From an uncultured Anaeroplasmataceae bacterium (lineage in GTDB: Bacteria > Bacillota_I > Bacilli_A > Acholeplasmatales > Anaeroplasmataceae): a stretch of DNA of 64,000 nt. Shown here piece by piece: positions 1-15,196 of this stretch (within the stretch, counting starts at the first letter, position 1; each line of letters starts with the position of its first letter). Position numbers and translations under genes: made by a program. Below the pieces are notes generated by a model. That model saw nothing but the letters and a program-made list of their open reading frames with translations, was not told the origin of the DNA and searched no databases. The DNA is taken from NCBI GenBank assembly GCA_949840955.1, contig CATKXV010000003.1, forward strand, positions 124,001-188,000. The letters run 5' to 3'.

Positions 1-2607
1 TCCTAGAGGAATAATGTAATCATAATAATATCTTCCTAATGGGGTCGTTGCATAATAATCTGCCTTGATTCTATCATCGTCATCAATCGCAGCATCATAG
101 GCCTCTGATTCTACCTCATAATAGCTTTTATCAAAGATAGGAGCCTCTGACCAATCTCCAAAGAAGGCAAGTAAAGGAATATTTAAATCAATCCCTTCTT
201 CTGCTTTTAAGCAAATAAAGCCCTCAACATACATACCATTATCAAAATTTTGATTAATATAAGATTTATCCTTTTTAGACAATTTCATTGTTATGGTAAT
301 GACAGCATCACCATTTGCCTCAACAACAACATTGTTTTTCTCCTTTTTACCGTTTCCAGCTACATCAAATTCTAAACTAGGGTTTAGCATATATGCCATT
401 TCAGCCACATAGTTAGAATCTGATGTAGATAAAGATTCTGTCATAATCAAAGAGGAGAGATCATAAGTTAATACTTGATTAGACAAATTCTTCAAATGGA
501 AACTAAAGATATATTCACCACTTCTCTTAGGGTCATCCCCTAATTCGATTTTCGTCTTATTTGAATTTTCTACATAAAGATAAGCATTCGTATTTACTGA
601 ATTATAAAGACTTGCAAGTCCTGCTCCCTGCTTTCTTGGAGAGTATGGATTTCCCTTTTGATCTAAGGCAATTGTAGCAGTAGACATACATAACTGATTC
701 ACCATATCTCTAATTTCAGTTGTAGAAAGGTTAGGATATTTTTCCTTAACATATTGACGGATTAGAATAGTAATACCACACATATTAGGGGAAGCCATAG
801 AGGTACCTGATAATTTATCATAGCCCCCACCAGGGATTGCTGATAAAATATTCCCACCATGAGCTGTAATTTCTGGCTTCAGCTCTAGGCTTGGTGTAGG
901 TCCCCAGCTTGAAAAATCAGACATAAATGGACCTGCTAAATTATTGGCATTAAATTCTAAAACTCCCTCAGCCTTAGAGGCCAAAAGAATACCATCATCC
1001 TTAGAAATTGAAATCACTGGAATTTTTACATCATTTCCTACAGTCATAATAATATCTCCAAAGACATTATTATAAACGATACAAGCAATCGCTCCAGCCT
1101 CAGCAGCATACTGTACCTTTTCCTCAAAGGATATATCTCCACGCTTAACCAAAGCAATTTTACCCTTTACATCAATTCCCATATAGTTGGCTGTCATACC
1201 AACACCTGGAACAGTAACATAATCATAGGTTACAGATGTACTTCCCGTAACTCCAAGCATTTCAAAGAAATTATATTCCTTTGCAGATTGATTAAAGGAT
1301 TCATGGAAAAATACAGTTTGTTCGCCATTAGCAAGCATATACTTATCCTTATTCCCATTAATGGAAGCAACAGACATAGCTCCTTTATAGGTAGACGGAG
1401 CTCCAACCGTAGCTGAATCTGGATTTGTAGTCTTATTGGTATTACCAAAGGCTGATCCATAGGCACTGCTATAGTCATTAGAAGCTGCAACAACTAAAGA
1501 TATACCTGCCTCTTCAATAGAATCATATATTTTATTTTTATATGTTTGGTCTACTTCTCTTGTAAAGCCACAGGAAGTGCCCAAGGACATATTAATTGCA
1601 TCAACACCAAGGAGGACAGCATCATCTAATCCAGCAAGGATATCTCCATCATCTGCACCATCCTTATAATCTGAGAACACCTTCATAATGGCAAGCTGTG
1701 TATCAACAGCAACACCATGAATTGTAGAATCATAGCCTCCAATTATACCAGCAACATGGGTTCCATGCTCACTATGATAAGGCATAATATCTGGATCCTT
1801 ATCTGCATAATCATAGCCATAAGGAATTTTACTAGAATAATAAACATCCCGAGTCTCTAAACCCTCACTATAGCCACTAGCCACGGTATTGGGTAATATT
1901 TTCCCTATATCTTCTCTACTCATTAAAGGATCTTCCGTTATATGTGTAGTAAAAGCAGTATGTGTATAATCACAACCAGTATCCAGTATAGCTACAATTG
2001 TACCTTTACCCGTAAAGGAAACATCACTGCTATCAAAGATACCTGTATCATAAACCTTGACTTCATTCGTCACGGCTAAAGGTGCCTCATAGGTATCAGA
2101 AATCATAACACGTTCAATTCCATTTAATTTAGTTAAGGCTTCTATATTCGCGTAGGTGGTTGTAGCATAAATACCATCTAAAATTGTAGAATAAGAATAC
2201 TTAATATCCTTAACTAAACCTGAATTTCTTAAATGATTTTTAATCCCATTTTGTTTATTGTTAAGCTTTTTGACAAAATCGACTGCATCTTTTGATTTTG
2301 CATACTCACTGACATTTTCAAATTTAGTATTTGTTTCATTAAATCTAGAAACCAAAGAATCATCAGAAAATGTAATAATTACATTTACCTCCTGATTCAT
2401 ATCGAAATTTTTTATTTTTTGGATTAAATCCTTATTGATTGAATCAATAAAATTCGCCTTGAAATCTGTATCGATTTTCTTTAAAGAAAGATGATTATCA
2501 CTTTCCATATTCGAAATATCATTAAGATTAGAAGGCGCTAAAGAACAGCTTGTTAGCACACCCGTTAAAGTGATGCATAATAAGCCCAATTTTTTTACTA
2601 TCTTCAT
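1..2607 (-). CDS. Cell-surface S8 subtilisin-like protease lipoprotein, partial (C-terminus beyond the window)
   Basis: Surface-anchored serine endopeptidase of the C5a-peptidase/lactocepin type; 869 codons are visible and the frame is open at base 1. A signal peptide ends in a lipobox (L-T-S-C, Cys21). A propeptide-like region follows, then the catalytic triad: Asp209 in AILDTGCDYTH, His281 in HGTHVAG and Ser603 in SGTSMASPN. A PA-type insert lies at about residues 440-540, and a C-terminal beta domain of the Fn3/DUF1034 kind starts near 680. The ATG at 2605-2607 follows an unusual G-rich ribosome site (AGCGGGGGC). It lies downstream of two InlB-repeat lipoproteins on the same strand, with a hairpin between. 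Family membership is firm; substrate is unknown. Confidence 0.93.
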   Translation of the reverse strand, partial: MKIVKKLGLLCITLTGVLTSCSLAPSNLNDISNMESDNHLSLKKIDTDFKANFIDSINKDLIQKIKNFDMNQEVNVIITFSDDSLVSRFNETNTKFENVSEYAKSKDAVDFVKKLNNKQNGIKNHLRNSGLVKDIKYSYSTILDGIYATTTYANIEALTKLNGIERVMISDTYEAPLAVTNEVKVYDTGIFDSSDVSFTGKGTIVAILDTGCDYTHTAFTTHITEDPLMSREDIGKILPNTVASGYSEGLETRDVYYSSKIPYGYDYADKDPDIMPYHSEHGTHVAGIIGGYDSTIHGVAVDTQLAIMKVFSDYKDGADDGDILAGLDDAVLLGVDAINMSLGTSCGFTREVDQTYKNKIYDSIEEAGISLVVAASNDYSSAYGSAFGNTNKTTNPDSATVGAPSTYKGAMSVASINGNKDKYMLANGEQTVFFHESFNQSAKEYNFFEMLGVTGSTSVTYDYVTVPGVGMTANYMGIDVKGKIALVKRGDISFEEKVQYAAEAGAIACIVYNNVFGDIIMTVGNDVKIPVISISKDDGILLASKAEGVLEFNANNLAGPFMSDFSSWGPTPSLELKPEITAHGGNILSAIPGGGYDKLSGTSMASPNMCGITILIRQYVKEKYPNLSTTEIRDMVNQLCMSTATIALDQKGNPYSPRKQGAGLASLYNSVNTNAYLYVENSNKTKIELGDDPKRSGEYIFSFHLKNLSNQVLTYDLSSLIMTESLSTSDSNYVAEMAYMLNPSLEFDVAGNGKKEKNNVVVEANGDAVITITMKLSKKDKSYINQNFDNGMYVEGFICLKAEEGIDLNIPLLAFFGDWSEAPIFDKSYYEVESEAYDAAIDDDDRIKADYYATTPLGRYYYDYIIPLG

Positions 2608-2661
2608 ATTATTGCCCCCGCTAAAAATATTTGATAAATATTTAATTTTAAATAATCAACC

Positions 2662-2694
2662 GAATAAGACAAGCATCAAAGGCTTGTCTTATTC
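2662..2694 (-). terminator. Strong hairpin between two lipoprotein genes
   Basis: Perfect 13-bp inverted repeat (arms 2662-2674 and 2682-2694, 7-nt loop), 22 bases past the stop of the 1766-residue lipoprotein gene. The 3' side on the minus strand is GGTTGATTATTT, only moderately T-rich. It may terminate incompletely or protect the 3' end, leaving the downstream protease at lower expression. Confidence 0.65.
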
Positions 2695-2715
2695 AATTGT
2701 ATGCTTTATTTCTTT

Positions 2716-5700
2716 TTAAGATTGCTTCTTATACTCCGCATAATTATTATCATCATCCGTTAGATTTAAGCCATCTCCACTTATTGTTATATAAATGTCT
2801 GTTTCACTAATCGTATATCTATTCCCAGTCAATTGCTTTACAGTAAAGCCTGAATAGGTTTGATTTAATGCAACTGTATAAGTTCCATCAGAATTTTTTG
2901 TAATGATGATTTTTTCAACAAAATAAGATTTATATTTACTATATTCTGTTCTAACCCAAGTACCTACATATGGATCTGTTTCTTCAACAACCTCTTTTGT
3001 ATACGTACAAGAATATTCATCCCAACCTTGCGTATAATTTGCTGTAATTGTATTATCAGAATTTAACTTTATTCCATATGTATAGTTTGTATCCAAATCA
3101 TAGCCTTCTTTTAATTGTTCTAAAGTTAAACTAGTCCATGAGGTTTTATCTCCTAATACAACCTTATAAGTGCCATTAGAATTTTTAGTAATCGTTAATG
3201 AAGTTGGCATTTTCTGACTATTATAGCTATTTGGATTACCACTCCAGGTTCCAACAATATCGAATTCTTCAATAGGATCATCTCCACCATTAGAATCCGT
3301 TGTATAAATGATCTCATCACTACTATACCTTGCACGCATCATAAGTACATCATTTTCATAGTAACTATTTAAATAAACATATTTTGAATTTAAAGTTACT
3401 CCATTACTATTTGAAGTATTAGAGAAATATTTTAAATCTGTTTGAATACTAGATGAACCAGATGTAACTGTATATTTATTCGTAGCTTCATCATAGGCTA
3501 CTGTAAATGTATCTCCCATAGCAAGATAAGGTTGTTTTGTCTTATCACCAGAAGCATAATAATATGTGCCTACAGGATTTGTCACAAGATATAGTGTTCC
3601 ACTTCTGCTAACACCAGAATATGTACAAGTAATTGTATAACTGCCATTTAGAGTTGAATCAAAATTTGAAGGAAGTTGAATCATATCAGCAGTTACAGGA
3701 ACAGGAGTTCCATTAAGCTTTGCAGTAAACATATTACTTGCTAAAATTTCATTAATCATTTCAGCATTTGTTCTTTGATTTGCTAATAAATACGTTGTTG
3801 TTGGATAATTAACCTCTGGATTATTAATAATTTTAATATAGGTTGTAGCTTCAAATAAAATACCACAGTAATATACATTCGCAACTATTGCATAAACCTC
3901 ATCTACTGTCTTTAGTTCTTCAGCAGTTAAAGTTGTTTTAACTGAAACATTACTAATGGATACGTTACTACCATTATCGGTCAATTTGAAATACGTACTT
4001 CCAGTAAAGCTACTAGCACTAGAATAAGCTCCTGCCTTCACCTCAACTGGAGTATCATTAGTTCCTTTTCCTTCAAATGATGTATTATCATAGGAAACTA
4101 ATGAAAAATTCTTTGATTTTAAATAATATGCAGGATTTGGATATGTAGGGTTAGAATAATACGTTGAAGAATAATATTTCAATTCTAAAACATTTCCATT
4201 TTCTACAGTCATATCATATTCATAATCATATTTATTTAGGGAAATCTTTATTCTATTATTGGCAACTGTAAAAGTACCTGTATAATCACCCGTTGGATAT
4301 GTAGAGGAAAATTTAGTATCATCGTAGATTACTGTTCCACCCGTCTTAGTTTCATTTACTGTTAATAATAAGAAGATGTCACTAGACTTAAAACTACCAT
4401 ATACATATAAATATGGATTTGGTTTGATTGTTAGCTTATAAGATAATTCTTGATCATGATATGTACAAGTAATCATATATTCGCCTGGAATATTGGAATC
4501 AAAACCAACTGGTAAAGTAATCATGTCCTCCGTTATTGGTTCTGTTGTTCCATTATGACTGGCTTTGAACATATTTAAAGCAATAATATCAGCTTTACTA
4601 AAATCCTCTACAGCTACAATCTCTTTTGCAGAACCTGTTAATGAATAGGCATCAAGTACTGTAATATCTACCATTACAGTATATTTCACACCATAGGCCC
4701 AACTATATGCTTCTAATGAATAGGTTCCTGGAGTGTTTCTCTGATCACTTGTCATAGAGTTAGTCCAGGAAAGACTAAAGCGTGTATCTAAAACATCATC
4801 TACATACATTCCCATAATAGAACTTAAGCTTGGAGGGAAACTTCCTGCATTCATCGTTATCGCTGCTGCATCTTTTTTCTTTAATTCTACTGTTTTCGTC
4901 AATAATTCAAAATCTTTTGATTTATAATCATATGCATTTGTGCTTGCTCCTGTAAGGTACTTTGTTTGATTATCATTCGTAAATGTAAAGATTTGATTAT
5001 TAAAGCTAAACGTTTTTTCTTCCACATCTACATCAAAAGTATTTGATGTAGATGCTGCATTTGTATAGTATGCATATGTAACTTTCAATTTAGTTTCATC
5101 ATCTGGATTTAAGAATAATCTTACAAAATAATTTCCATTAACATATGTGCCCACATATTCACTTACAGCAGATACTGGAGCTTCTTCTAATTCATAGCTG
5201 TCAGTTCCAACAACCAATGATAATAGATCTGTTAATATGAATTCCACTTCCACATTTTCTATTGTTGCTACCAAACGATCAAACACATAAACGGCTTCTA
5301 ATACAGTATCAGCAGGAACTTCGTTTCCATTTAAGGTGAATTGCTCTAAAACCTTAATACTGTACATATTATCTGTATAAGATATTCTAAATTTTGTATT
5401 TAAGGTAGCATTCATATAAGGCTTATCTAAATAATCTGTAAAGGACTTTTCTTCTACCTGATAGCCTTCTTTAACATAGTGAGACGTTCCAGTAGATAAT
5501 ACATTTCCTTTATGATAAATCGTATAGGTTGTACTATTTAATTTTATCGTCTTATTTTCTTCATCATATACATAGGTGTCATAATAACTTGCACCTGATC
5601 TTTTATAGTATCCTAAGCCACTAACCTCAAAGTAAGATGTGCCAGAAGCATATTTTCCTTCCATGCCATCCTTTTCTGTCACTTCAATTAACGTTCTATC

Positions 5701-8016
5701 CTGGATTTGATAGAATTTTTCCACATGGTCTGTGTGAATCACTAGCATATTTTTCATGTAACCAACCATTGCGTATTGAACTGGTTCATTATTCAATAAT
5801 GCATCTCCAGGTAATCCATTTGTAGGACCAAAGCCATCTAATACCAATACATCCTCTGTTCCTTGAATCTTGTATGATCCAGCATGTTCTTTACCAGCCT
5901 CTAACAATCCCCAAGAGAAATCAGTAGGTAATTTTGTTACTTTGAATTTCACCGTAGACTGGTTATATGCTAAAGTGATAAGAGAATCTACCACAAATTC
6001 TCCTTCAACCTCAGCTACATAATCATTCCCATTCACTTCAACAACACATAATGTATCAAATTGATAAACACTGATTGAATTATCACTTAAATAGCTTTTT
6101 GGAATACTTCCTTTTACATATACCTTAGTAACCTCATCCTTTGTTAATATCATTACTCCATTTTCTAATGTTCCTGTATAGGTAATGGTATCGCCTTGAT
6201 TCGTTGTTTTATAGGCTAGGGTTACTATATTATTTTCATAGGTTGCTGTTCCTTGATAGGTATCTGAGCCATCAAATCTAGTCAAATGTCCATACGCATC
6301 AATTACCAAATTCTTGACGGTTCTACTATCTCCAGTATAATAGGTTCCTGCAATATCCTTTGTATCTGGCAATGTGATTCTAGTTAGCGTTGAGGTCTCA
6401 GAAACACGGTCCAAATCATCTTCTGTCCTATAATATTCTCTAACAAAGGTAATTGTTTCATTTTCTGGATTATAGCTAAAGGATACGAGATCATTTCCAA
6501 CTGTGATTTTAGCTGATGTAAAATCATTCATTGTGTAGGAATATTCTACACCCTTATAAATTAATTTTGATGAGGATACCTCTAAAAATACATCATAATT
6601 ATCCTTAGACCATGTACCATACATCAAGTCATAAGTATTTGCAAATTTTGCATAAAAATGCTTTTCCCCTGTGGAGCCTAGAGAAATCCCTGTAGCTGCT
6701 GTTTGCAATGCTTCATCCAAATACCAGCCTGCAAAAGTATAACCTAATTTATTCGCATCCACTAAGACTACTGCATCCTTAACAGTATATGTAGAAGGAT
6801 TATCCCCATTAGTACCACCATTCAGGTGATATGTTATGTCATATTCTTCTAAAATAAACTTAGCAAATAGTGTTTTATCTTCCTTAGAATCACTTGATAT
6901 TTCTGTTATTGCATGCTCAAAGCTTGCATCTGTATACCACCCTACAAAGGTATAGCCCTTCTTTGTTGCAGGATGTAAAGAAATTGTATTTCCTGTTGTA
7001 TAACCTGCTGGATTGGATTGACTATTTTCTCCTCCATCCAATTCATAATGAATTACAAAATCTACCATTTCCCATTTTACATATAAATCTAAATTTCCTG
7101 TTGTTCCAGCCTTGATTTCTGTAATGGAATTGTTAAATTCAGAATCCGTATACCATCCCTTAAATACCATGTGATCTTTTGTAGGCTTCAAGAAGGTAAC
7201 CTCATCCAAAATTGTAAAGCTCTCTGGATTTTCTACTCGATTTGTACCACCATCTAGATGATAGGTAATGGTATATGTGATTATCTCAAATTTAGCATAG
7301 AAATCTAGATTTGCTTTATCATCCTTAGTTACACCCGTAACCTTATTCTTATAGGAGCTATCAGAAAACCATCCTACGAAGGTATAGCCCTTCTTTGTAG
7401 CATCCTTTAATACTACTGTAGTTGCTTCCTTATAAGAACTTGGATTATCTTCATGATTTGTACCACCATCTAAATGATAGGTAATCGTATAATTTGCAGG
7501 AGCCACCACAGCTGGATCTTCCCACTTGGCGTATAGATCCAAATTTCCCTTTGAACCCTTTTTGATTGCTGTAACACCTGTTTTAAAAGCTGAATCTGAG
7601 AACCAGCCTTTAAATATCTTATCTCCATTTGTAGGATCACTGAGTGCTACCTCATCTAAAATTGTATAAGAGCTTGGATTAGCTGACGCATTTGTGCCAC
7701 CATTTAAATGATAGGTAATCGTATAAACAACAGCCTCCCATTTCGCATAAAGTGTAACATCTTCTTTTTCTAAATCAAGAGGAAAAGTTACTCTTTCATC
7801 CTTAAAGTCACTTGTTTTAAACCACCCTGCAAAGGTATAACCGTCCTTTGTAGGTACAGGCTCTTCAGCTACAGCTTGATTCGATTCAGCAATAGGTGAA
7901 CCCTCATTGCTATTAAATATAATTTTGCTTTCCTTATGGCTTGTACAGCTCCATAAGGAAATAGATATACCAACAGCAACCACCAGCAGTAGCATTTTTT
8001 TAAAGATTTTTCTCAT
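2716..8016 (-). CDS. Giant InlB B-repeat lipoprotein (1766 aa)
   Basis: Predicted lipid-anchored surface protein. The signal peptide ends at Cys24 (L-W-S-C; Trp at -2 is unusual). Six Listeria-Bacteroides (InlB B/Flg_new) repeats of about 65-70 residues fill roughly residues 33-460, each with a Y-x-I-x-Y-x-L-(N/D)-G-G start, a G-(W/Y)-F/Y core and an LYAKW end. The remaining ~1300 residues hold many tyrosine/threonine-rich beta units beginning G-T-(W/Y) or G-S-(Y/F), for example at the two C-terminal GTW units, which share ITKNS-x-G-TY. These resemble serial lipocalin-like strands but match no family I can name. The start has a good GGAGGG site. Probable adhesin or matrix protein; function is inferred from repeat type only. 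Confidence 0.88.
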   Translation of the reverse strand: MRKIFKKMLLLVVAVGISISLWSCTSHKESKIIFNSNEGSPIAESNQAVAEEPVPTKDGYTFAGWFKTSDFKDERVTFPLDLEKEDVTLYAKWEAVVYTITYHLNGGTNASANPSSYTILDEVALSDPTNGDKIFKGWFSDSAFKTGVTAIKKGSKGNLDLYAKWEDPAVVAPANYTITYHLDGGTNHEDNPSSYKEATTVVLKDATKKGYTFVGWFSDSSYKNKVTGVTKDDKANLDFYAKFEIITYTITYHLDGGTNRVENPESFTILDEVTFLKPTKDHMVFKGWYTDSEFNNSITEIKAGTTGNLDLYVKWEMVDFVIHYELDGGENSQSNPAGYTTGNTISLHPATKKGYTFVGWYTDASFEHAITEISSDSKEDKTLFAKFILEEYDITYHLNGGTNGDNPSTYTVKDAVVLVDANKLGYTFAGWYLDEALQTAATGISLGSTGEKHFYAKFANTYDLMYGTWSKDNYDVFLEVSSSKLIYKGVEYSYTMNDFTSAKITVGNDLVSFSYNPENETITFVREYYRTEDDLDRVSETSTLTRITLPDTKDIAGTYYTGDSRTVKNLVIDAYGHLTRFDGSDTYQGTATYENNIVTLAYKTTNQGDTITYTGTLENGVMILTKDEVTKVYVKGSIPKSYLSDNSISVYQFDTLCVVEVNGNDYVAEVEGEFVVDSLITLAYNQSTVKFKVTKLPTDFSWGLLEAGKEHAGSYKIQGTEDVLVLDGFGPTNGLPGDALLNNEPVQYAMVGYMKNMLVIHTDHVEKFYQIQDRTLIEVTEKDGMEGKYASGTSYFEVSGLGYYKRSGASYYDTYVYDEENKTIKLNSTTYTIYHKGNVLSTGTSHYVKEGYQVEEKSFTDYLDKPYMNATLNTKFRISYTDNMYSIKVLEQFTLNGNEVPADTVLEAVYVFDRLVATIENVEVEFILTDLLSLVVGTDSYELEEAPVSAVSEYVGTYVNGNYFVRLFLNPDDETKLKVTYAYYTNAASTSNTFDVDVEEKTFSFNNQIFTFTNDNQTKYLTGASTNAYDYKSKDFELLTKTVELKKKDAAAITMNAGSFPPSLSSIMGMYVDDVLDTRFSLSWTNSMTSDQRNTPGTYSLEAYSWAYGVKYTVMVDITVLDAYSLTGSAKEIVAVEDFSKADIIALNMFKASHNGTTEPITEDMITLPVGFDSNIPGEYMITCTYHDQELSYKLTIKPNPYLYVYGSFKSSDIFLLLTVNETKTGGTVIYDDTKFSSTYPTGDYTGTFTVANNRIKISLNKYDYEYDMTVENGNVLELKYYSSTYYSNPTYPNPAYYLKSKNFSLVSYDNTSFEGKGTNDTPVEVKAGAYSSASSFTGSTYFKLTDNGSNVSISNVSVKTTLTAEELKTVDEVYAIVANVYYCGILFEATTYIKIINNPEVNYPTTTYLLANQRTNAEMINEILASNMFTAKLNGTPVPVTADMIQLPSNFDSTLNGSYTITCTYSGVSRSGTLYLVTNPVGTYYYASGDKTKQPYLAMGDTFTVAYDEATNKYTVTSGSSSIQTDLKYFSNTSNSNGVTLNSKYVYLNSYYENDVLMMRARYSSDEIIYTTDSNGGDDPIEEFDIVGTWSGNPNSYNSQKMPTSLTITKNSNGTYKVVLGDKTSWTSLTLEQLKEGYDLDTNYTYGIKLNSDNTITANYTQGWDEYSCTYTKEVVEETDPYVGTWVRTEYSKYKSYFVEKIIITKNSDGTYTVALNQTYSGFTVKQLTGNRYTISETDIYITISGDGLNLTDDDNNYAEYKKQS

Positions 8017-8064
8017 AAAAACTTTCCCTCCTTTGATTTTTTATTTTGTTTTTATAAAATTTTC

Positions 8065-11000
8065 TTATTTTTCTTCCACAAATTCAGAATAATCGGTATC
8101 CCCATAATCCAGCTTTTCCTGTCCCCAAATACGGTATGCTGTATTATCTTCTCCAACCAAATCAAAGGAGAAGCTATAGAATCCACTATTATATTGAGAA
8201 AGGAAATATTTCATACTTGTAAACTCTGTATCAAATAATATGGCAAAAGGAGTAACATGCTTATAATTTGAAAGCTCTCCTTCAGGCACATTATATTCAA
8301 ATTGTGGATAGGATGTACTCTTATCCTCATATTTATAGGTAGGTGTATCAGCCAAGATTTTATATGGCCGCTCTACATTTTCTAAGACTGTCGTTGTAGT
8401 TTTTCCTGTAAGATTGGATAAATCAATTACCTTTGCCTTAGGTATTTTATTTTCCATATAATAATAAATTGTAACCAAACGTTCAGGATAAGAATAGGTA
8501 AATTCATTGCTGTTATTTGGATAAATTCTTGCAACTAATTTCCCCTTATTTAAGGCTTGATCATACCAATATTCGAAGGACCCGTTGTATGTTACAGCTC
8601 CATTTACCTTCACGCTAAAGGATTGCTTTACCATATGAGAATGCTGAAATGCTTCTAGCATTTTAGCTAATTTATCCTCAACAGAATAATTAATGGTAGT
8701 AATATCGCTATCCCGATAGGTGATGTTATCGCCCATCGCATAAATAGAAATTTTGTAGGTTCCCTCAGTATAACTTAAGTCATAATGATTGGCATATACC
8801 TCTTCTTGCTTTAAAAGATTCCCTTTAGAATCTGTAATCCGAATCAAATACTTTTGAGCCCCTGTAACCTCATCCCATTCTAACGTATTTGTTGTTCTAT
8901 TAACGATTACATTCGTTGGAGCATCTAATTTTATATATTTAGAAATTTCAAATTCTATTTCATTGGAAGGTAAGGAATCTTTATATCGAGTTTCATCCCC
9001 TTTACCAACCATTCGTATTGTATAGGTAGCATCCCTTTCTCCGTTTGGAGATAAATCTGCTTTAAAATCAAAGCCATTGGTAACAAGCTTTGGATAGCCC
9101 TCTACCAATTCATTATTTAAATAAACATAAGCCTCATAGCCCGTTGCAGTAGAATTCGGCTCAAGGGTAAGAATTCCCTCAGAGCTGATAGAGAACTTAG
9201 GTGCGTCCTGATTTCTTAAAACATGTTCTGGTGCAACAGCATCTGCTGTTATTCCAGAAGGTAGCGTAACTGTTGTAGAACCAATATTTAAGAATACACC
9301 TCTACCACTAATAATCTCTGTAAAGGAACCAAATAAATCAACTACACGTAAAATACCAGAATAATAAATGTTATCAATTTTGTTACCATAAAGGTTAATA
9401 GCAATAAAATCTAATTCAATATTATATTTACGGGTTGTAGAGCTATTTTGATGGAAGGAATTAGAACCACTAAATCTAGAAAGTACATAAGAGCAATCCT
9501 TTAAATATTCCTCCTTACAATAATAATTCCCATCAACACCCTCATAGAACCAATTAACATTCAACATATTTAATAATGGTGTTCCCCAATCAATATCAAC
9601 ATTTCCTGCCTCTACTTCTCTTTGAGAGGAACCATAATATGCATAAGCAATTCCATTTTTAAAATAATAGTAATAATTGCTATTTACCTTTGAAGCATTG
9701 GCTGTATGATAATAGGTATCATATTCGCCATTAAAAATTCCATATAATTCATCTCCAGCAAATACAAATTCATCACGATAGGTATAGTTTGTCCCCATTG
9801 TATTCCATACATTGGTTAAACGATTTACGCTTCCATTTTCCTTTGGTGTACCTGGAACATATAGTACACTTTCAGAAACAGGTAATTCTACAGTCTGCTC
9901 ATCATAATTTTGAACAATGATTTCCTTAATTAAGTATTCAGTAGCATCTGGGCTCATCGTTGTAAAATCAGAATAAATATCAATATGGCTAGCCGCAAGA
10001 ACTCTAGAAAGCTTTCCATTCGTTAAATATAAGTAAAGATAATCATAGGTTTCAATTTCAGCATACGGATTATAATAATAGTCATTATCTCCAAAAATAA
10101 AACGTCCGATTTCTGTCACATTATTTCCTTGATAAACAAATCCCATAATGGATTCATCAAAATGAAATTCATTTTTGTCTAATGCCAAATTAGAGGTAGG
10201 AATCTTACAATTATAGCTTAAGGCCACATTGGCTTCTGCATCTAATAAAAATTGATTGTATTCATATTTATTCTTATAGGAATACTGATCACAATAAACT
10301 TTCCCATTTGTAATATAGAAATTAGCCTTGGAGATTGAATCATAATAATAGTAACCAACATTTCCACTTTCTAAGTATTCAACCTTTCCCTTAACGCCAT
10401 CCACATAAATAAATTGATTCATTTTAGCTATGGAGCCACCTACATTTGCAAGTAAGGTATAATAAGCTTTATAATCAGCTAAAGCCTCTAATGCCTTTTC
10501 TAAATCATTTAAAGTGTACAAAAGATTATCTGCTGTATACGTACGATTTGGATCTGTATCATCTAGCTTAGGATAATTTCCTGATGGCAATTCCTGATTT
10601 CCAATAAAATCATTTTCTTCAATTGGAGCAATATTATTCAAATTATCAAAGCCTAAGGTATAGGTTTGACGATATTCAGTTGCAGGGATTCCTGTAGCGC
10701 CTGTCTGTGCCTCACCATAGGTTAGCTTAGACTTAGCCTCTATTCCAGTAATATTTCCATTGACATCAAAAACTAAGCATAAGGATGAAAATGCCTCAGC
10801 ACGAATAATATGGCTAGAGCCTACAACTCCTGAAAAATCTTGATCACCCAAAAGCATCTTGGCTGCATCATTCACATATTCATCTAAAGCATACCAACGA
10901 TTGTCATACTTATAGAACATATTTGGATTTAAATTTTTCAAGGCATATAGATTCGTTTCATCAAAATATTCCTCATAAGGATTATCTGTTTCTACACATT

Positions 11001-12033
11001 CATAGAAAACTCCACCATTTTCAACAGTCCCTTCAGGACTTTGGAAATAGGCAAAATATTTATCCTCTGCTTCTCTATAAAATAAGAAGGAACGATAATA
11101 TAAGATATTTCCGTTATCGTCACGTTCAAAATCACCATCAATAAAATTTGGAGCTAAGCGTGTTAAATTTTTACCGTTAACAGTATAGGTTGATGCTCCT
11201 CTAAACACAATTCCATTATCATTAGAAACCTCTAAGCCATAGCTTTCCCGATAACTGGTTATATTTTTGTTTAAAAGTGCAGTTAAAGTAGCTACATCCT
11301 CTGGATTTGTATTTTTTGTTGGCTCCCACTTTGCATATAAGGTACAATTTTCTAAAAGCTCAAATGGAAAGCTAACCTTTTTCGTAAGGTCCTCATCCTC
11401 ATACCAGCCTACCAGGGTTGCATTAGCTTTACTGGATGCTGGAGAGCTTTCAATGACAGTACCTACAAAATCATCAACAGCACTTCCACCATTGGTTTCA
11501 AAGGTTACTGTATAGGTTTCCTCAGGACTATCATCTCTTAAATATGCATACAATGTAACATCCTCTGTCACTACAAATGGGAAGGTTACCTTTGTTTTAA
11601 AATTGCTTTCTAAATACCAACCTAAAAACGTATGATTTTCCAAGCTTGTTTTAGGCTCTTCTTCTATCACATCTGTTTTTACAGAAGGAACTGGAAGACC
11701 TCCATTGGTTTTAAAGGTAACAGTAAACATTTTCTTTTCAACTGTCTTTTCTTCCCATTTGGCATAAAAGGTTTCATCCTTTGTTATGGAATAAGGGAAG
11801 GTAACTTTATCAGAGGAAAAATCCTCAGCTAAATACCAGCCTAAAAACGTATGCTCGTCCTTTTGTGTTAAAGGCTCGTATTCAATTTCTTTTGCCGTTA
11901 TAGGATTAACTTTTGTACCACCATTGGTTTCAAATAAAACCGTAAACATTTTATCCTTTGTTGTACAAGCCATTAAAACTATAGTTGCCAATACTACCAC
12001 GATACTGGCAAAAAACATTTTAATTTTTTTCAT
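8065..12033 (-). CDS. InlB B-repeat lipoprotein (1322 aa)
   Basis: Lipoprotein with lipobox L-M-A-C (Cys23), followed by three InlB B-repeats at about residues 31-240 (each F-T-V-x-F-x-T-N-G-G to LYAKW or similar). A long tyrosine- and asparagine-rich region comes next, and a fibronectin-III-like segment near 920-1080 with APTNVIVNRTTNTLEWDEV at its centre. Its G-rich ribosome site (AAGCGGGGGTC) is nearly the same as that of the S8 protease. It is first in the run of three surface lipoproteins and sits directly behind a promoter with a G9 spacer, so its expression is probably switchable. No enzymatic motif was found; adhesion is the best guess. Confidence 0.88.
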   Translation of the reverse strand: MKKIKMFFASIVVVLATIVLMACTTKDKMFTVLFETNGGTKVNPITAKEIEYEPLTQKDEHTFLGWYLAEDFSSDKVTFPYSITKDETFYAKWEEKTVEKKMFTVTFKTNGGLPVPSVKTDVIEEEPKTSLENHTFLGWYLESNFKTKVTFPFVVTEDVTLYAYLRDDSPEETYTVTFETNGGSAVDDFVGTVIESSPASSKANATLVGWYEDEDLTKKVSFPFELLENCTLYAKWEPTKNTNPEDVATLTALLNKNITSYRESYGLEVSNDNGIVFRGASTYTVNGKNLTRLAPNFIDGDFERDDNGNILYYRSFLFYREAEDKYFAYFQSPEGTVENGGVFYECVETDNPYEEYFDETNLYALKNLNPNMFYKYDNRWYALDEYVNDAAKMLLGDQDFSGVVGSSHIIRAEAFSSLCLVFDVNGNITGIEAKSKLTYGEAQTGATGIPATEYRQTYTLGFDNLNNIAPIEENDFIGNQELPSGNYPKLDDTDPNRTYTADNLLYTLNDLEKALEALADYKAYYTLLANVGGSIAKMNQFIYVDGVKGKVEYLESGNVGYYYYDSISKANFYITNGKVYCDQYSYKNKYEYNQFLLDAEANVALSYNCKIPTSNLALDKNEFHFDESIMGFVYQGNNVTEIGRFIFGDNDYYYNPYAEIETYDYLYLYLTNGKLSRVLAASHIDIYSDFTTMSPDATEYLIKEIIVQNYDEQTVELPVSESVLYVPGTPKENGSVNRLTNVWNTMGTNYTYRDEFVFAGDELYGIFNGEYDTYYHTANASKVNSNYYYYFKNGIAYAYYGSSQREVEAGNVDIDWGTPLLNMLNVNWFYEGVDGNYYCKEEYLKDCSYVLSRFSGSNSFHQNSSTTRKYNIELDFIAINLYGNKIDNIYYSGILRVVDLFGSFTEIISGRGVFLNIGSTTVTLPSGITADAVAPEHVLRNQDAPKFSISSEGILTLEPNSTATGYEAYVYLNNELVEGYPKLVTNGFDFKADLSPNGERDATYTIRMVGKGDETRYKDSLPSNEIEFEISKYIKLDAPTNVIVNRTTNTLEWDEVTGAQKYLIRITDSKGNLLKQEEVYANHYDLSYTEGTYKISIYAMGDNITYRDSDITTINYSVEDKLAKMLEAFQHSHMVKQSFSVKVNGAVTYNGSFEYWYDQALNKGKLVARIYPNNSNEFTYSYPERLVTIYYYMENKIPKAKVIDLSNLTGKTTTTVLENVERPYKILADTPTYKYEDKSTSYPQFEYNVPEGELSNYKHVTPFAILFDTEFTSMKYFLSQYNSGFYSFSFDLVGEDNTAYRIWGQEKLDYGDTDYSEFVEEK

Positions 12034-12108
12034 ATCTTTGACCCCCGCTTGTCATAATAAATAGCTATAAATATAAATTATAATTTATAATTATAAGTAT
12101 TAATCGCT

Positions 12109-12138
12109 ATTATACCCCCCCCCATATACTTTTGTCAA
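12109..12138 (-). promoter_or_regulatory. Consensus promoter with a G9 tract in the spacer (putative phase-variable promoter)
   Basis: On the minus strand a perfect -35 TTGACA (12133-12138) and a perfect -10 TATAAT (12109-12114) are separated by 18 bases. The -10-proximal nine spacer bases are all G (12115-12123 as C on the plus strand). Gain or loss of one G changes the spacer to 19 or 17, the range over which sigma-70-type promoter strength changes sharply. It is about 75 bases upstream of the 1322-residue lipoprotein start. Confidence 0.85.
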
Positions 12139-12317
12139 GATTATGCACAGTATTTTATGTCTTTTTTTACCAAAAAAGCCTTTTCATAGTTTTTTGTTTG
12201 TATTTTATTTTGAGAAAATATAATTTTGACGAATATTGTTCACACAAGAAAAAAATGCAATTTTTGTCGAAAAAGATATAAAAATCAGGCTAGAAATGAT
12301 TTGAAAGGCAAAAGAAA
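12139..12317. other. Non-coding AT-rich stretch between the lipoprotein promoter and spoVS
   Basis: Together with 12034-12138 and the hairpin at 12318-12351 this makes a gap of about 330 bases without a gene. Beyond the promoter and the spoVS terminator I see only AT-rich sequence with no ORF of note and no clear RNA structure. Confidence 0.6.
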
Positions 12318-12351
12318 AGGATGAGGATTTTCTTTTGAATATCTTCATCCT
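12318..12351 (-). terminator. Terminator after spoVS
   Basis: Arms AGGATGA (12345-12351 read on minus) and TCATCCT (12318-12324) with a partly paired loop, followed on the minus strand by TTTTCTTTT. It lies 13 bases after the spoVS stop. Confidence 0.65.
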
Positions 12352-12363
12352 AAAAATGAATTA

Positions 12364-12624
12364 TTATAAGGCCTTGACAATGAGCTTAATTGCTGTTTTT
12401 TCTTCTCCTTCTATTAGAATATCAGAGAAGGCTGGAATAACTACTAAATCCTTTCCAGTAGGAGCAACATATCCTCTAGCTATCGCAATTGCCTTAATCG
12501 CTTGATTGATAGCTCCTGCGCCTATGGCTTGAATCTGTACTTGGTTTTTCGTTTTAAATGAATTAGCTAAGGCTCCTGCAACGCTTGCAGGCTTTGATCT
12601 TGTGGATACTTTTAATATTTCCAT
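12364..12624 (-). CDS. spoVS: Stage V sporulation protein S family (SpoVS)
   Basis: Small Alba-like protein of 86 residues, the normal family length, with the conserved MEILKVS start, the GAGAINQAIKAIAIARG core and the VVIPAFSDI segment. SpoVS affects septation and coat assembly in Bacillus, but the family also occurs in non-spore-formers as a probable nucleic-acid-binding regulator. A clear AAAGGAG site precedes the ATG. It follows rny and ymdB, the same order as in Bacillus subtilis, which supports the assignment. Sporulation cannot be concluded from this gene alone. Confidence 0.96.
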   Translation of the reverse strand: MEILKVSTRSKPASVAGALANSFKTKNQVQIQAIGAGAINQAIKAIAIARGYVAPTGKDLVVIPAFSDILIEGEEKTAIKLIVKAL

Positions 12625-12719
12625 GAAAATACTCCTTTCTACTCTAATTATATGGAAGAAAGGAAGTAAAAATTCCTAATATTTTTTTATGGAAAGTCCT
12701 ATGCCATGAAATAAAAAAC

Positions 12720-12765
12720 GTTGCTATCCTTCTTCCGTATTTCCTACGAATTTAAAAATAGCAAC
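12720..12765 (-). terminator. Nested hairpin terminator after ymdB
   Basis: Outer arms GTTGCTAT (minus, from 12765) and ATAGCAAC (to 12720), with a small inner CGTA/TACG hairpin, followed on the minus strand by GTTTTTTATTT. It is just past the ymdB stop and would separate ymdB from spoVS. Confidence 0.6.
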
Positions 12766-12771
12766 TATTTT

Positions 12772-13542
12772 TTAATAATATGAAATATCAATCTCTTTTT
12801 TAAAGCCTTCAATCGTATTGACTTTACCTAAATCTAAAATTACCCCATTGAGGATATATTTTGTATCTGTAGATACTTTAACAGAATCATAGACGCCTGT
12901 TTTAAAACGTTCTAAAATTCCTGAAACATCACTTCCCAAAATAGAATATTTGGGTCCACACATACCCATATCTGATATGTAGCAGGTATTCTTATACACC
13001 TCTTCATCATCTGTTTTGATGTGCGTATGGCTTCCTAGGATTGCATCTACCCTTCCAGAATATTCATAGAAAAACGCCTTTTTTTCGCTTGTAGCTTCTC
13101 CATGGAAATCTACTAAAATATGATCCGCCTGAATCTCTTTCAATAAGGAATCAAAGGTTTGAAAAGGACAATCCAAAGGAGAATTCATATAAACCCTTCC
13201 CATCAAATTGACTAATGCAATTACCTCTGTATTGTATTTGATATAAACAACCTTTTTCCCTAAATCACAAGGTAAATTTGCAGGAATCGCTATGGTTGCA
13301 TCTGGCAGATAATCCTTAATCTCAGATTTAGAAAAGGTATGATTTCCCATGGACATACCTGCAATTCCTAAGGCCTTTAGCTCCTTATAATGGCTATAAG
13401 AAAGCCCACGTCCCTTTGTAACATTTTCTGCATTACAAAATACAAGCTGGATATGATGTTCTTTTTTTATTTCCTCTAAATTCTTTTTTAAGACCTCAAT
13501 TGTTTTTTCTCCAACAATGTCTCCTAAATAAAGTATCCTCAT
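12772..13542 (-). CDS. ymdB: YmdB-family metallophosphodiesterase
   Basis: 256-residue TIGR00282/YmdB enzyme; the Bacillus protein is a di-iron phosphodiesterase acting on 2',3'-cyclic nucleotides and shaping biofilm versus motility fate. The metal ligands known from the family are present at the expected numbers: Asp8 (GDIVG), Glu39 and Asn40 (NAEN), Asn67 and His68 (GNHTF), plus later HGE and GSHTH motifs. The ATG is preceded by GGGAGG. It lies between rny and spoVS, the conserved context. A hairpin terminator sits between rny and this gene, so read-through or a separate weak promoter must feed it. Confidence 0.96.
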   Translation of the reverse strand: MRILYLGDIVGEKTIEVLKKNLEEIKKEHHIQLVFCNAENVTKGRGLSYSHYKELKALGIAGMSMGNHTFSKSEIKDYLPDATIAIPANLPCDLGKKVVYIKYNTEVIALVNLMGRVYMNSPLDCPFQTFDSLLKEIQADHILVDFHGEATSEKKAFFYEYSGRVDAILGSHTHIKTDDEEVYKNTCYISDMGMCGPKYSILGSDVSGILERFKTGVYDSVKVSTDTKYILNGVILDLGKVNTIEGFKKEIDISYY

Positions 13543-13569
13543 AAATCCTCCCTGTTTTTAAAAAAATTA

Positions 13570-13590
13570 AGGGATGAGCTTCTCATCCCT
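13570..13590 (-). terminator. Terminator or attenuator between rny and ymdB
   Basis: Perfect 9-bp stem (AGGGATGAG and CTCATCCCT with a 3-nt loop), followed on the minus strand by TAATTTTTTT. It stands 8 bases after the rny stop and 28 bases before the ymdB start. Confidence 0.85.
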
Positions 13591-13597
13591 CTTTCAA

Positions 13598-15196
13598 CTA
13601 CTTTGCTACATCTACAGCACGAGTTTCACGAATAACCGTAACCTTAATCGTACCTGGATAGGAAAGCTTGTTTTCAATTTCTTCTTTAATCTGCCGAGCT
13701 ATAGATATTGTTGACAAATCATCTACCTCATCTGGATTAACAATGACACGGACCTCACGTCCTGCCTGTATAGCAAAGGATGAGGCTACCCCCTTGACAT
13801 TATTTGAAATTGCTTCTAAGCTCTCTAAACGCTTTGCATAATTCTCTAAAGAATCACTTCTAGCACCTGGTCTTGCAGAAGATAGGGCATCTGCCGCAGC
13901 GACCAATACAGCAATGACACTTTTTGGTGCTACATCCTCATGGTGTGATGCAATAGCATCGATAACCTCTTTTGGCTCATGATATTTTTTAGCAAGTTCA
14001 ACACCAATGTCAACATGAGATCCTTCAATCTCGTGATCCACAGCTTTACCAATATCATGAAGTAAGCCTGCACGTCGAGCAATTACCTCATTTTCTCCGA
14101 TTTCACTTGCTAGCTTTCCAGCAATCATAGCAGTTTCTAGTGAGTGAAGTAACACATTTTGACCATAGCTTGTACGGTAATTCAAACGACCAATCAAACG
14201 TACTAAATCTGGATGAATCTTTCCAATTCCAGCTTTAAATACAGCTTCCTCGCCCTTTTCACGAATTGCCATTTCAACCTCACCACGACAACGCTCAACA
14301 ACCTCCTCAATTCTAGCAGGATGGATACGACCATCTCCAACTAAAATTTCTAAAGAACGCTTTGCAATTTCTCTACGTACTGGATCAAAACCAGATAATA
14401 CGACTGCCTCTGGAGTATCATCAATAATTAAATCTACACCAGTTAAGGATTCTAAGGTTCTTATATTGCGGCCTTCACGACCAATAATACGCCCCTTCAT
14501 TTCTTCTACAGGTAGGGAAACTGTAGAAACTGTGGTTTCACCTGCTGTTTCTCCTGCATACTTTTGAATGGCCAAGGCTAATATATTTTTAGCCTTTGTC
14601 TTTACTTCTAAGCGAGCCTTTTCTTCTTCCTCTTTGATGTAGGTGGCAATCTCTGTGCTCATATCCTCACGAACACGATCCATTATGATTGTCTTTGCTT
14701 CCTCCTTAGTTAAGGATGCAATCTCAATCAACTTTTGCTCCTGTTGCTTCAAAATGGCTTCTACCTTATTATTTTGTTGTTCTAATTCATTTTTCTTTTC
14801 ATCAATCTTATTTTCTTTAGCATTCAACATTTCTTCGCGACGATCTAAATTAATAGAACGGCGATCCAAGGTATCCTCACGTTGATTTAATTTATTCTCT
14901 AAATCAACCACAGCTCCTCGTCTTTCTTTAATGTCTCTATCCACATCACTTTTTAAACTTGCAATTTCTTGCTTCGCCTCTTGTATAGCTTCTTTTTTTC
15001 TTTTTTCGGCATCAGCTTCTGCCATTGCAATTATTTTTTCAGCTTCGGATCTCGTTTTTGCAAAGGACTTTTCATGCAATTTAACTCGTATAAAATATCC
15101 TATTACTAATCCAATACCTATTCCTAAGATTAAGCACAAAACAATAAGAGAAATCCAAATTGGGACACTTAAGCTTGATAAAATAGTAGTTCCCAT
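13598..15196 (-). CDS. rny: Ribonuclease Y
   Basis: 532-residue membrane-anchored endoribonuclease that starts bulk mRNA turnover. Features in order: one N-terminal membrane helix (about residues 5-30, [17 protein letters not shown]), a long charged coiled coil (about 40-200), a KH domain with [15 protein letters not shown], and an HD domain with [10 protein letters not shown] followed by SHHED. The start chosen is the ATG at 15194-15196, because AAGGGGG lies 5 bases upstream; an in-frame start ten codons earlier has no such site. A good promoter lies at 15242-15270. Full length and normal for the family. Confidence 0.97.

What the first reader, a model, noticed from the sequence alone, without database searches (positions are those of the whole stretch)
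12109..12138. Putative phase-variable promoter: G9 tract inside a consensus -35/-10 spacer driving surface lipoproteins
A perfect TTGACA and a perfect TATAAT are 18 bp apart, and nine consecutive spacer bases are G. In an AT-rich genome a G9 run is unexpected, and its position lets slipped-strand replication toggle the spacer between 17, 18 and 19. The gene behind it, and perhaps the two after, encode large InlB-repeat and protease surface lipoproteins, the class of product usually phase-varied in host-associated bacteria. The sequence is seen directly; switching is inference from known poly-G/poly-C or poly-TA spacer switches.
Basis: partly seen in the sequence, partly recalled or inferred. 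Interest (0 to 1): 0.82.

Follow-up and report, generated by a model that had tools for sequence, protein, structure and literature searches.

The report
Poly-G spacer promoter driving surface lipoproteins
A run of nine Gs inside a perfect promoter in a gut/rumen bacterium (probably Anaeroplasma) belongs to a family of such promoters that recurs in its relatives, mostly in front of surface-protein genes and sometimes in front of probable anti-phage genes, and it most likely works as a slipping-DNA on/off switch of a kind so far studied mainly in pathogens.

Summary
It is not a one-off. The same genome has four such promoters (G9, G9, G9, G11). The host family has 32 strict sites in 13 of 55 genomes. 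The reversed pattern gives none in 160 genomes of the order, and poly-C in the same spacer gives none in the family. In the genus 20 of 21 sites have at least 8 Gs. The tract usually starts 8-9 bp after the -35. Three near-identical orthologous promoters carry G10, G10 and G12, the tract being the only indel in ~170 bp. A sibling gene pair carries G8 (in frame) versus G10 (out of frame) in a signal peptide. Downstream genes are mostly lipoproteins or secreted proteins, and some are candidate defence operons. I support phase variation by spacer length (porA/tp0126 type). Not shown: length variation within one clone, or any effect on transcription; reads and RNA were not available. The mechanism is known. 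The setting (a multi-locus set in commensal gut Mollicutes with mismatch repair, similar sites in many gut Bacillota) appears unreported in the library searched.

The parts
12133..12138 (-). -35 hexamer TTGACA (perfect)
12115..12132 (-). 18-bp spacer AAAGTATAT+G9
   Evidence: 8-9 bp before the tract at most family sites
12115..12123 (-). G9 tract (C9 on + strand), abutting the -10
   Evidence: orthologous and paralogous sites carry G8-G12
12109..12114 (-). -10 hexamer TATAAT (perfect)
12057..12104 (-). AT-rich 24+24 bp inverted repeat in the 5' leader, just downstream of the promoter; folds as a weak hairpin (z -1.0)
   Evidence: role unknown
12042..12046 (-). probable ribosome-binding site GGGGG, 8 nt before ATG; AGCGGGGGTCAAAGA conserved in the G006 ortholog
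8065..12033 (-). gene 1: 1322-aa surface lipoprotein (lipobox LMAC) with Flg_new/List_Bact repeats
   Evidence: syntenic 63%-identical ortholog in G006
2716..8016 (-). gene 2: 1766-aa lipoprotein with Flg_new/InlB-like repeats, 48 bp after gene 1, no terminator-like site between; probably co-transcribed
2657..2699 (-). terminator-like hairpin, 18 pairs, between gene 2 and gene 3
1..2607 (-). gene 3 (runs off window): S8 subtilase lipoprotein with PA and Fn3-like domains; perhaps a separate transcription unit

Best explanation
A spacer-length phase-variable sigma-70-type promoter. The G tract gains or loses Gs by slipped-strand mispairing during replication. G8 gives a 17-bp spacer (predicted strongest), G9 gives 18 (the state assembled here, predicted on or near on), G10-G11 give 19-20 (predicted weak or off). 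The promoter drives a large repeat-containing surface lipoprotein and probably the one after it, so a clone becomes a mixture of cells with and without them. It is one of at least four such promoters in this genome, which together would mix surface lipoproteins with two candidate defence operons. Shown: anatomy, recurrence, strand polarity, long-tract bias, between-species length change, nature of the products. Inferred: slippage within a clone, and the effect of length on transcription.
For: Exact anatomy. Four sites in the own genome; 21 in 8 of 11 genus genomes, 20 of them G8 or longer although G6-G7 were allowed; 32 in 13 of 55 family genomes; 0 reversed-pattern hits in 160 order genomes and 392 phylum genomes; 0 poly-C versions in 55 family genomes. 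By my count, 30 of 46 non-artefact G9+ tracts in the genus sit in such spacers. Orthologous promoters with near-identical flanks differ essentially only in tract length, G10/G10/G12; this gene's ortholog has at least G10 against G9. Downstream ORFs: 24 of 32 signal-peptide-like versus 12 of 44 window ORFs (Fisher p 6e-5). The genus also carries a poly-G tract in a signal peptide, G8 in frame in G000 and G10 out of frame in G006. Precedent: poly-G between -35 and -10 of T. pallidum tp0126 is optimal at 17 bp, and porA works alike (PMC7864442; PMC2791445).
Against: No reads, no two strains of one species and no RNA data, so variation within a clone and any effect on transcription are untested. 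MAG tract lengths can be wrong by one. MutS and MutL are present in all 11 genus genomes, so slippage is not helped by missing mismatch repair. Promoter tracts lie at contig ends far above expectation (11 of 47 within 150 bp, 0.7 expected), but other G tracts also do (2 of 23, 0.1 expected; difference p 0.2), so this may be a sequencing artefact and is not counted as proof.
Confidence: 0.84

Rival explanations
1. A fixed, non-switching promoter class: the G run is a conserved structural or regulator-binding element (for example it weakens the spacer or binds a G-tract protein), and its length is maintained rather than varied.
For: The tract sits at a nearly fixed distance from the -35 and always on the same strand. 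A different conserved tract, TATACT-G10-TATATT before a HAD hydrolase, is exactly G10 in six species, so fixed-length G runs do exist in this genus.
Against: Promoter tracts range over G8-G13, spacers mostly over 17-21, and near-identical orthologous promoters differ by 2 Gs. Target genes are the usual contingency class.
Confidence: 0.11
2. Chance or assembly artefact: a low-complexity run that happens to fall in a promoter, or an Illumina two-colour poly-G artefact.
For: Real poly-G artefacts occur at contig ends in this genus (L233, L245, L246, L252, L257).
Against: Those follow adapter-like or A-rich sequence at contig ends. The window site is 63 kb from the nearest contig end (C3:136109 of 199379), and the architecture recurs with zero control hits.
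Confidence: 0.01
3. Invertible promoter or other recombinational switch rather than a slipping tract.
For: There is an inverted repeat at 12057-12104.
Against: That repeat is a contiguous palindrome downstream of the -10, not a pair of repeats flanking the promoter. The other pairs are short and weak.
Confidence: 0.02

Closest known systems
Neisseria meningitidis porA (also fetA) promoter: homopolymer between -35 and -10
   Same: Poly-G between -10 and -35 of a surface-protein promoter; length sets transcription (PMC2791445, PMC3899988, PMC7864442)
   Different: Different phylum and host biology; here near-perfect hexamers and many loci share one layout; length-expression link not measured
Treponema pallidum tp0126 promoter
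   Same: Poly-G between -35 and -10, best at 17-bp spacing (PMC7864442)
   Different: Here the products are lipoproteins and defence proteins of a gut mollicute, not an OmpW homologue of a spirochaete
Bordetella pertussis fim and Mycoplasma hyorhinis vlp promoter tracts
   Same: Repeat tracts in promoters switch surface proteins (PMC3899988); vlp products are mollicute lipoproteins
   Different: vlp uses poly-A and fim poly-C (from memory); here strictly poly-G on the non-template strand
Invertible-promoter phase variation of gut bacteria
   Same: Stochastic control of surface genes in gut commensals
   Different: No flanking inverted repeats found here

Membership tests
Spacer-length phase-variable promoter (porA/tp0126 type) | Homopolymer between -35 and -10 | tested here: met
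Spacer-length phase-variable promoter (porA/tp0126 type) | Tract long enough to be hypermutable (about 8 or more G) and longer than chance | tested here: met
   G9 here; 20 of 21 genus sites are G8 or longer; zero controls
Spacer-length phase-variable promoter (porA/tp0126 type) | Tract length varies between isolates or within a clone | tested here: inconclusive
   Varies between sibling species at matching promoters; several strains of one species, or reads, not available
Spacer-length phase-variable promoter (porA/tp0126 type) | Transcription depends on tract length | not testable with these tools
   No RNA or reporter data
Spacer-length phase-variable promoter (porA/tp0126 type) | Drives a surface-exposed product | tested here: met
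   Lipobox plus List_Bact repeats; surface exposure itself inferred
Mycoplasma Vlp-type lipoprotein switch | Poly-A tract in the promoter of each lipoprotein gene | tested here: not met
   Tract is poly-G
Invertible promoter (fimS/PhaseFinder type) | Promoter flanked by inverted repeats | tested here: not met
   region 11900-13000 only

The most novel reading that the evidence does not exclude
Poly-G spacer promoters are a widespread, repeatedly evolved switch of gut and other host-associated commensals (Anaeroplasmataceae, many Clostridia/Bacilli MAGs, Saccharibacteria, Ancillula, Streptobacillus). They control surface proteins and anti-phage systems together in cells that keep mismatch repair, so multi-locus simple-repeat phase variation is not mainly a pathogen trait.
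Probability: 0.5. Interest if true: 0.78.

Novelty: new member of a known kind. Interest (0 to 1): 0.62.

Why it matters
[quoted passage not shown] Here a gut/rumen commensal lineage has a repeated, strictly built set of promoter switches, and a single pattern scan finds the same layout in more than 100 places, largely in gut MAGs. That makes the question testable with existing long-read metagenomes by counting tract lengths at named loci. Candidate defence operons under the same switch suggest phage-driven as well as host-driven bet-hedging.

Tried and rejected
My first own-genome pattern had a 4-bp gap in the wrong place and found nothing; corrected. The viral contig scan gave 0. Contig-end clustering was considered as evidence of mixed tract lengths, but control G tracts show it too, so it is not used. 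Loss of mismatch repair as the driver was rejected: MutS and MutL are present. Inverted promoter rejected. The leader hairpin is not better than shuffles. High-GC hits (e.g. near-identical Chloroflexi contigs) look like chance or a repeat and are not counted as support. No paper on Anaeroplasma phase variation or on poly-G spacer promoters in gut Bacillota was found in the open library; subscription journals were not searched.

Full report
OBSERVATION. On the minus strand the sequence reads TTGACA-AAAGTATAT-GGGGGGGGG-TATAAT (12138 to 12109), spacer 18. The ATG of a 1322-aa ORF lies 75 bp downstream at 12033. It is the only 12/12 promoter in 1-13600. G/C runs in the 33.5% GC window stop at 5, except for this 9. 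As an isolated run it would be only mildly surprising (about 0.14 expected per window); what follows shows that it is not isolated.

RECURRENCE IN THE SAME GENOME. Searching the genome with the upstream region returned short extra hits exactly over the promoter. The genome has four TTGACA-N9-G(9,9,9,11)-TATAAT sites: C1:224482, C2:13598, C2:33064, and the window site C3:136109. Of the five G9+ tracts in the genome four are these sites.

RECURRENCE IN RELATIVES, WITH CONTROLS. In the genus 8 of 11 genomes hold 21 sites; in the family 13 of 55 genomes hold 32; in the order's other 105 genomes none. In a phylum sample 13 of 392 genomes hold 27 sites, nine of them in five genomes of other families. 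The tools' built-in control, the pattern read backwards, gives 0 throughout. Poly-C in the same spacer gives 0 in 55 family genomes, so the polarity is strict: G on the non-template strand. The search allowed six Gs, yet 20 of 21 sites have eight or more, which suggests selection for long, slippage-prone tracts. The segment between -35 and tract is 8-9 bp at most family sites, and the tract usually touches the -10. Spacers at the 33 family sites examined are 17 or 18 in 22, 19-20 in 9 and 14-15 in 2. Across the genus 30 of 46 non-artefact G9+ tracts lie in such spacers (my count).

WHO IT IS. The window's own genome (2.1 Mb, 97% complete) shares the genus of G006. The host is therefore inferred to be an Anaeroplasma or close relative, a lineage placed in the class Mollicutes.

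WHAT IT DRIVES. Genes 1 and 2 are Listeria-Bacteroides-repeat lipoproteins; gene 3 is a subtilase lipoprotein beyond a terminator-like hairpin. G006 keeps the order and similar sizes of three ORFs, gene 1 being 63% identical. Across the family 24 of 32 first ORFs have signal-peptide-like N-termini versus 12 of 44 window ORFs (Fisher p 6e-5): List_Bact, BspA-LRR, Big_2 and GDSL lipoproteins, pilin-like and other secreted proteins. Notable exceptions in this same genome are the RyR-domain/TIR operon (TIR by Pfam; weak SAVED-TIR match in PADLOC) at C2:13598 and a MkoA-like helicase plus partner at C2:33064. G006 has a related helicase behind its own G8 promoter. These look like phage-defence operons, by domain content only.

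DOES THE TRACT CHANGE LENGTH? Three orthologous promoters (L208, L209, L237) are near-identical over about 170 bp except for G10/G10/G12 and single substitutions, including TATAAT to TTTAAT in the G12 copy. The ortholog of the window gene has at least 10 Gs, its contig ending inside the tract, against 9 here, with promoter and start region otherwise conserved. Separately, a secreted protein has its signal peptide interrupted by G8 in frame in G000 (L046) and by G10 out of frame in G006 (L273), as expected for two states of a translational switch. Variation inside one clone could not be tested.

MECHANISM. By analogy with porA and tp0126, where tract length sets the -35/-10 distance and 17 bp is best (PMC7864442; PMC2791445), G8 should be strongest, G9 close, G10-G11 weak. 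Three of the four promoters in this genome are assembled at 18 bp and one at 20. Mismatch repair genes are present, so switching rates may be moderate.

BREADTH. My rough uniform-composition expectation is about 7. Seventy-two of 131 sites in that scan plus the non-family phylum hits precede signal-peptide-like ORFs. High-GC hits are probably chance in part. This breadth is suggestive and lacks a matched control in that collection.

VERDICT. Observation exact; interpretation supported at the level of comparative genomics; mechanism already known elsewhere; organism, multi-locus set and defence targets apparently new in the literature I could search.

Noticed in passing
L046:1501-1508 (G000:C12:26259) and L273 (G006:C98:22850): Poly-G tract inside the signal peptide of related secreted proteins: G8 in frame in G000, G10 out of frame in G006; candidate translational phase variation.
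   Followed up: partly
L205:8265-8274, L234, L235, L238, L239, L256: TATACT-G10-TATATT upstream of a HAD hydrolase in six genus genomes, always exactly ten Gs and not in a -35/-10 spacer; unexplained fixed-length tract.
   Followed up: partly
L199:632-7128 (G000:C2): Candidate defence operon (RyR-domain protein, TIR protein with weak SAVED-TIR match, two unknowns) behind a G9 spacer promoter.
   Followed up: partly
L200:519-7364 and L202:941-7649: MkoA-like helicase plus unknown partner behind G11 and G8 spacer promoters in two species; candidate phase-variable Mokosh-like defence.
   Followed up: partly
L108:3086-4325 and L183: Streptobacillus notomytis: three paralogous secreted-protein genes each with its own poly-G spacer promoter.
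   Followed up: no
L233, L245, L246, L252, L257: Poly-G runs at contig ends after A-rich or adapter-like sequence: likely sequencing artefacts in these MAGs.
   Followed up: no
window:12057-12104: 48-bp AT-rich imperfect palindrome (83% complementary arms) in the leader between promoter and gene 1.
   Followed up: partly
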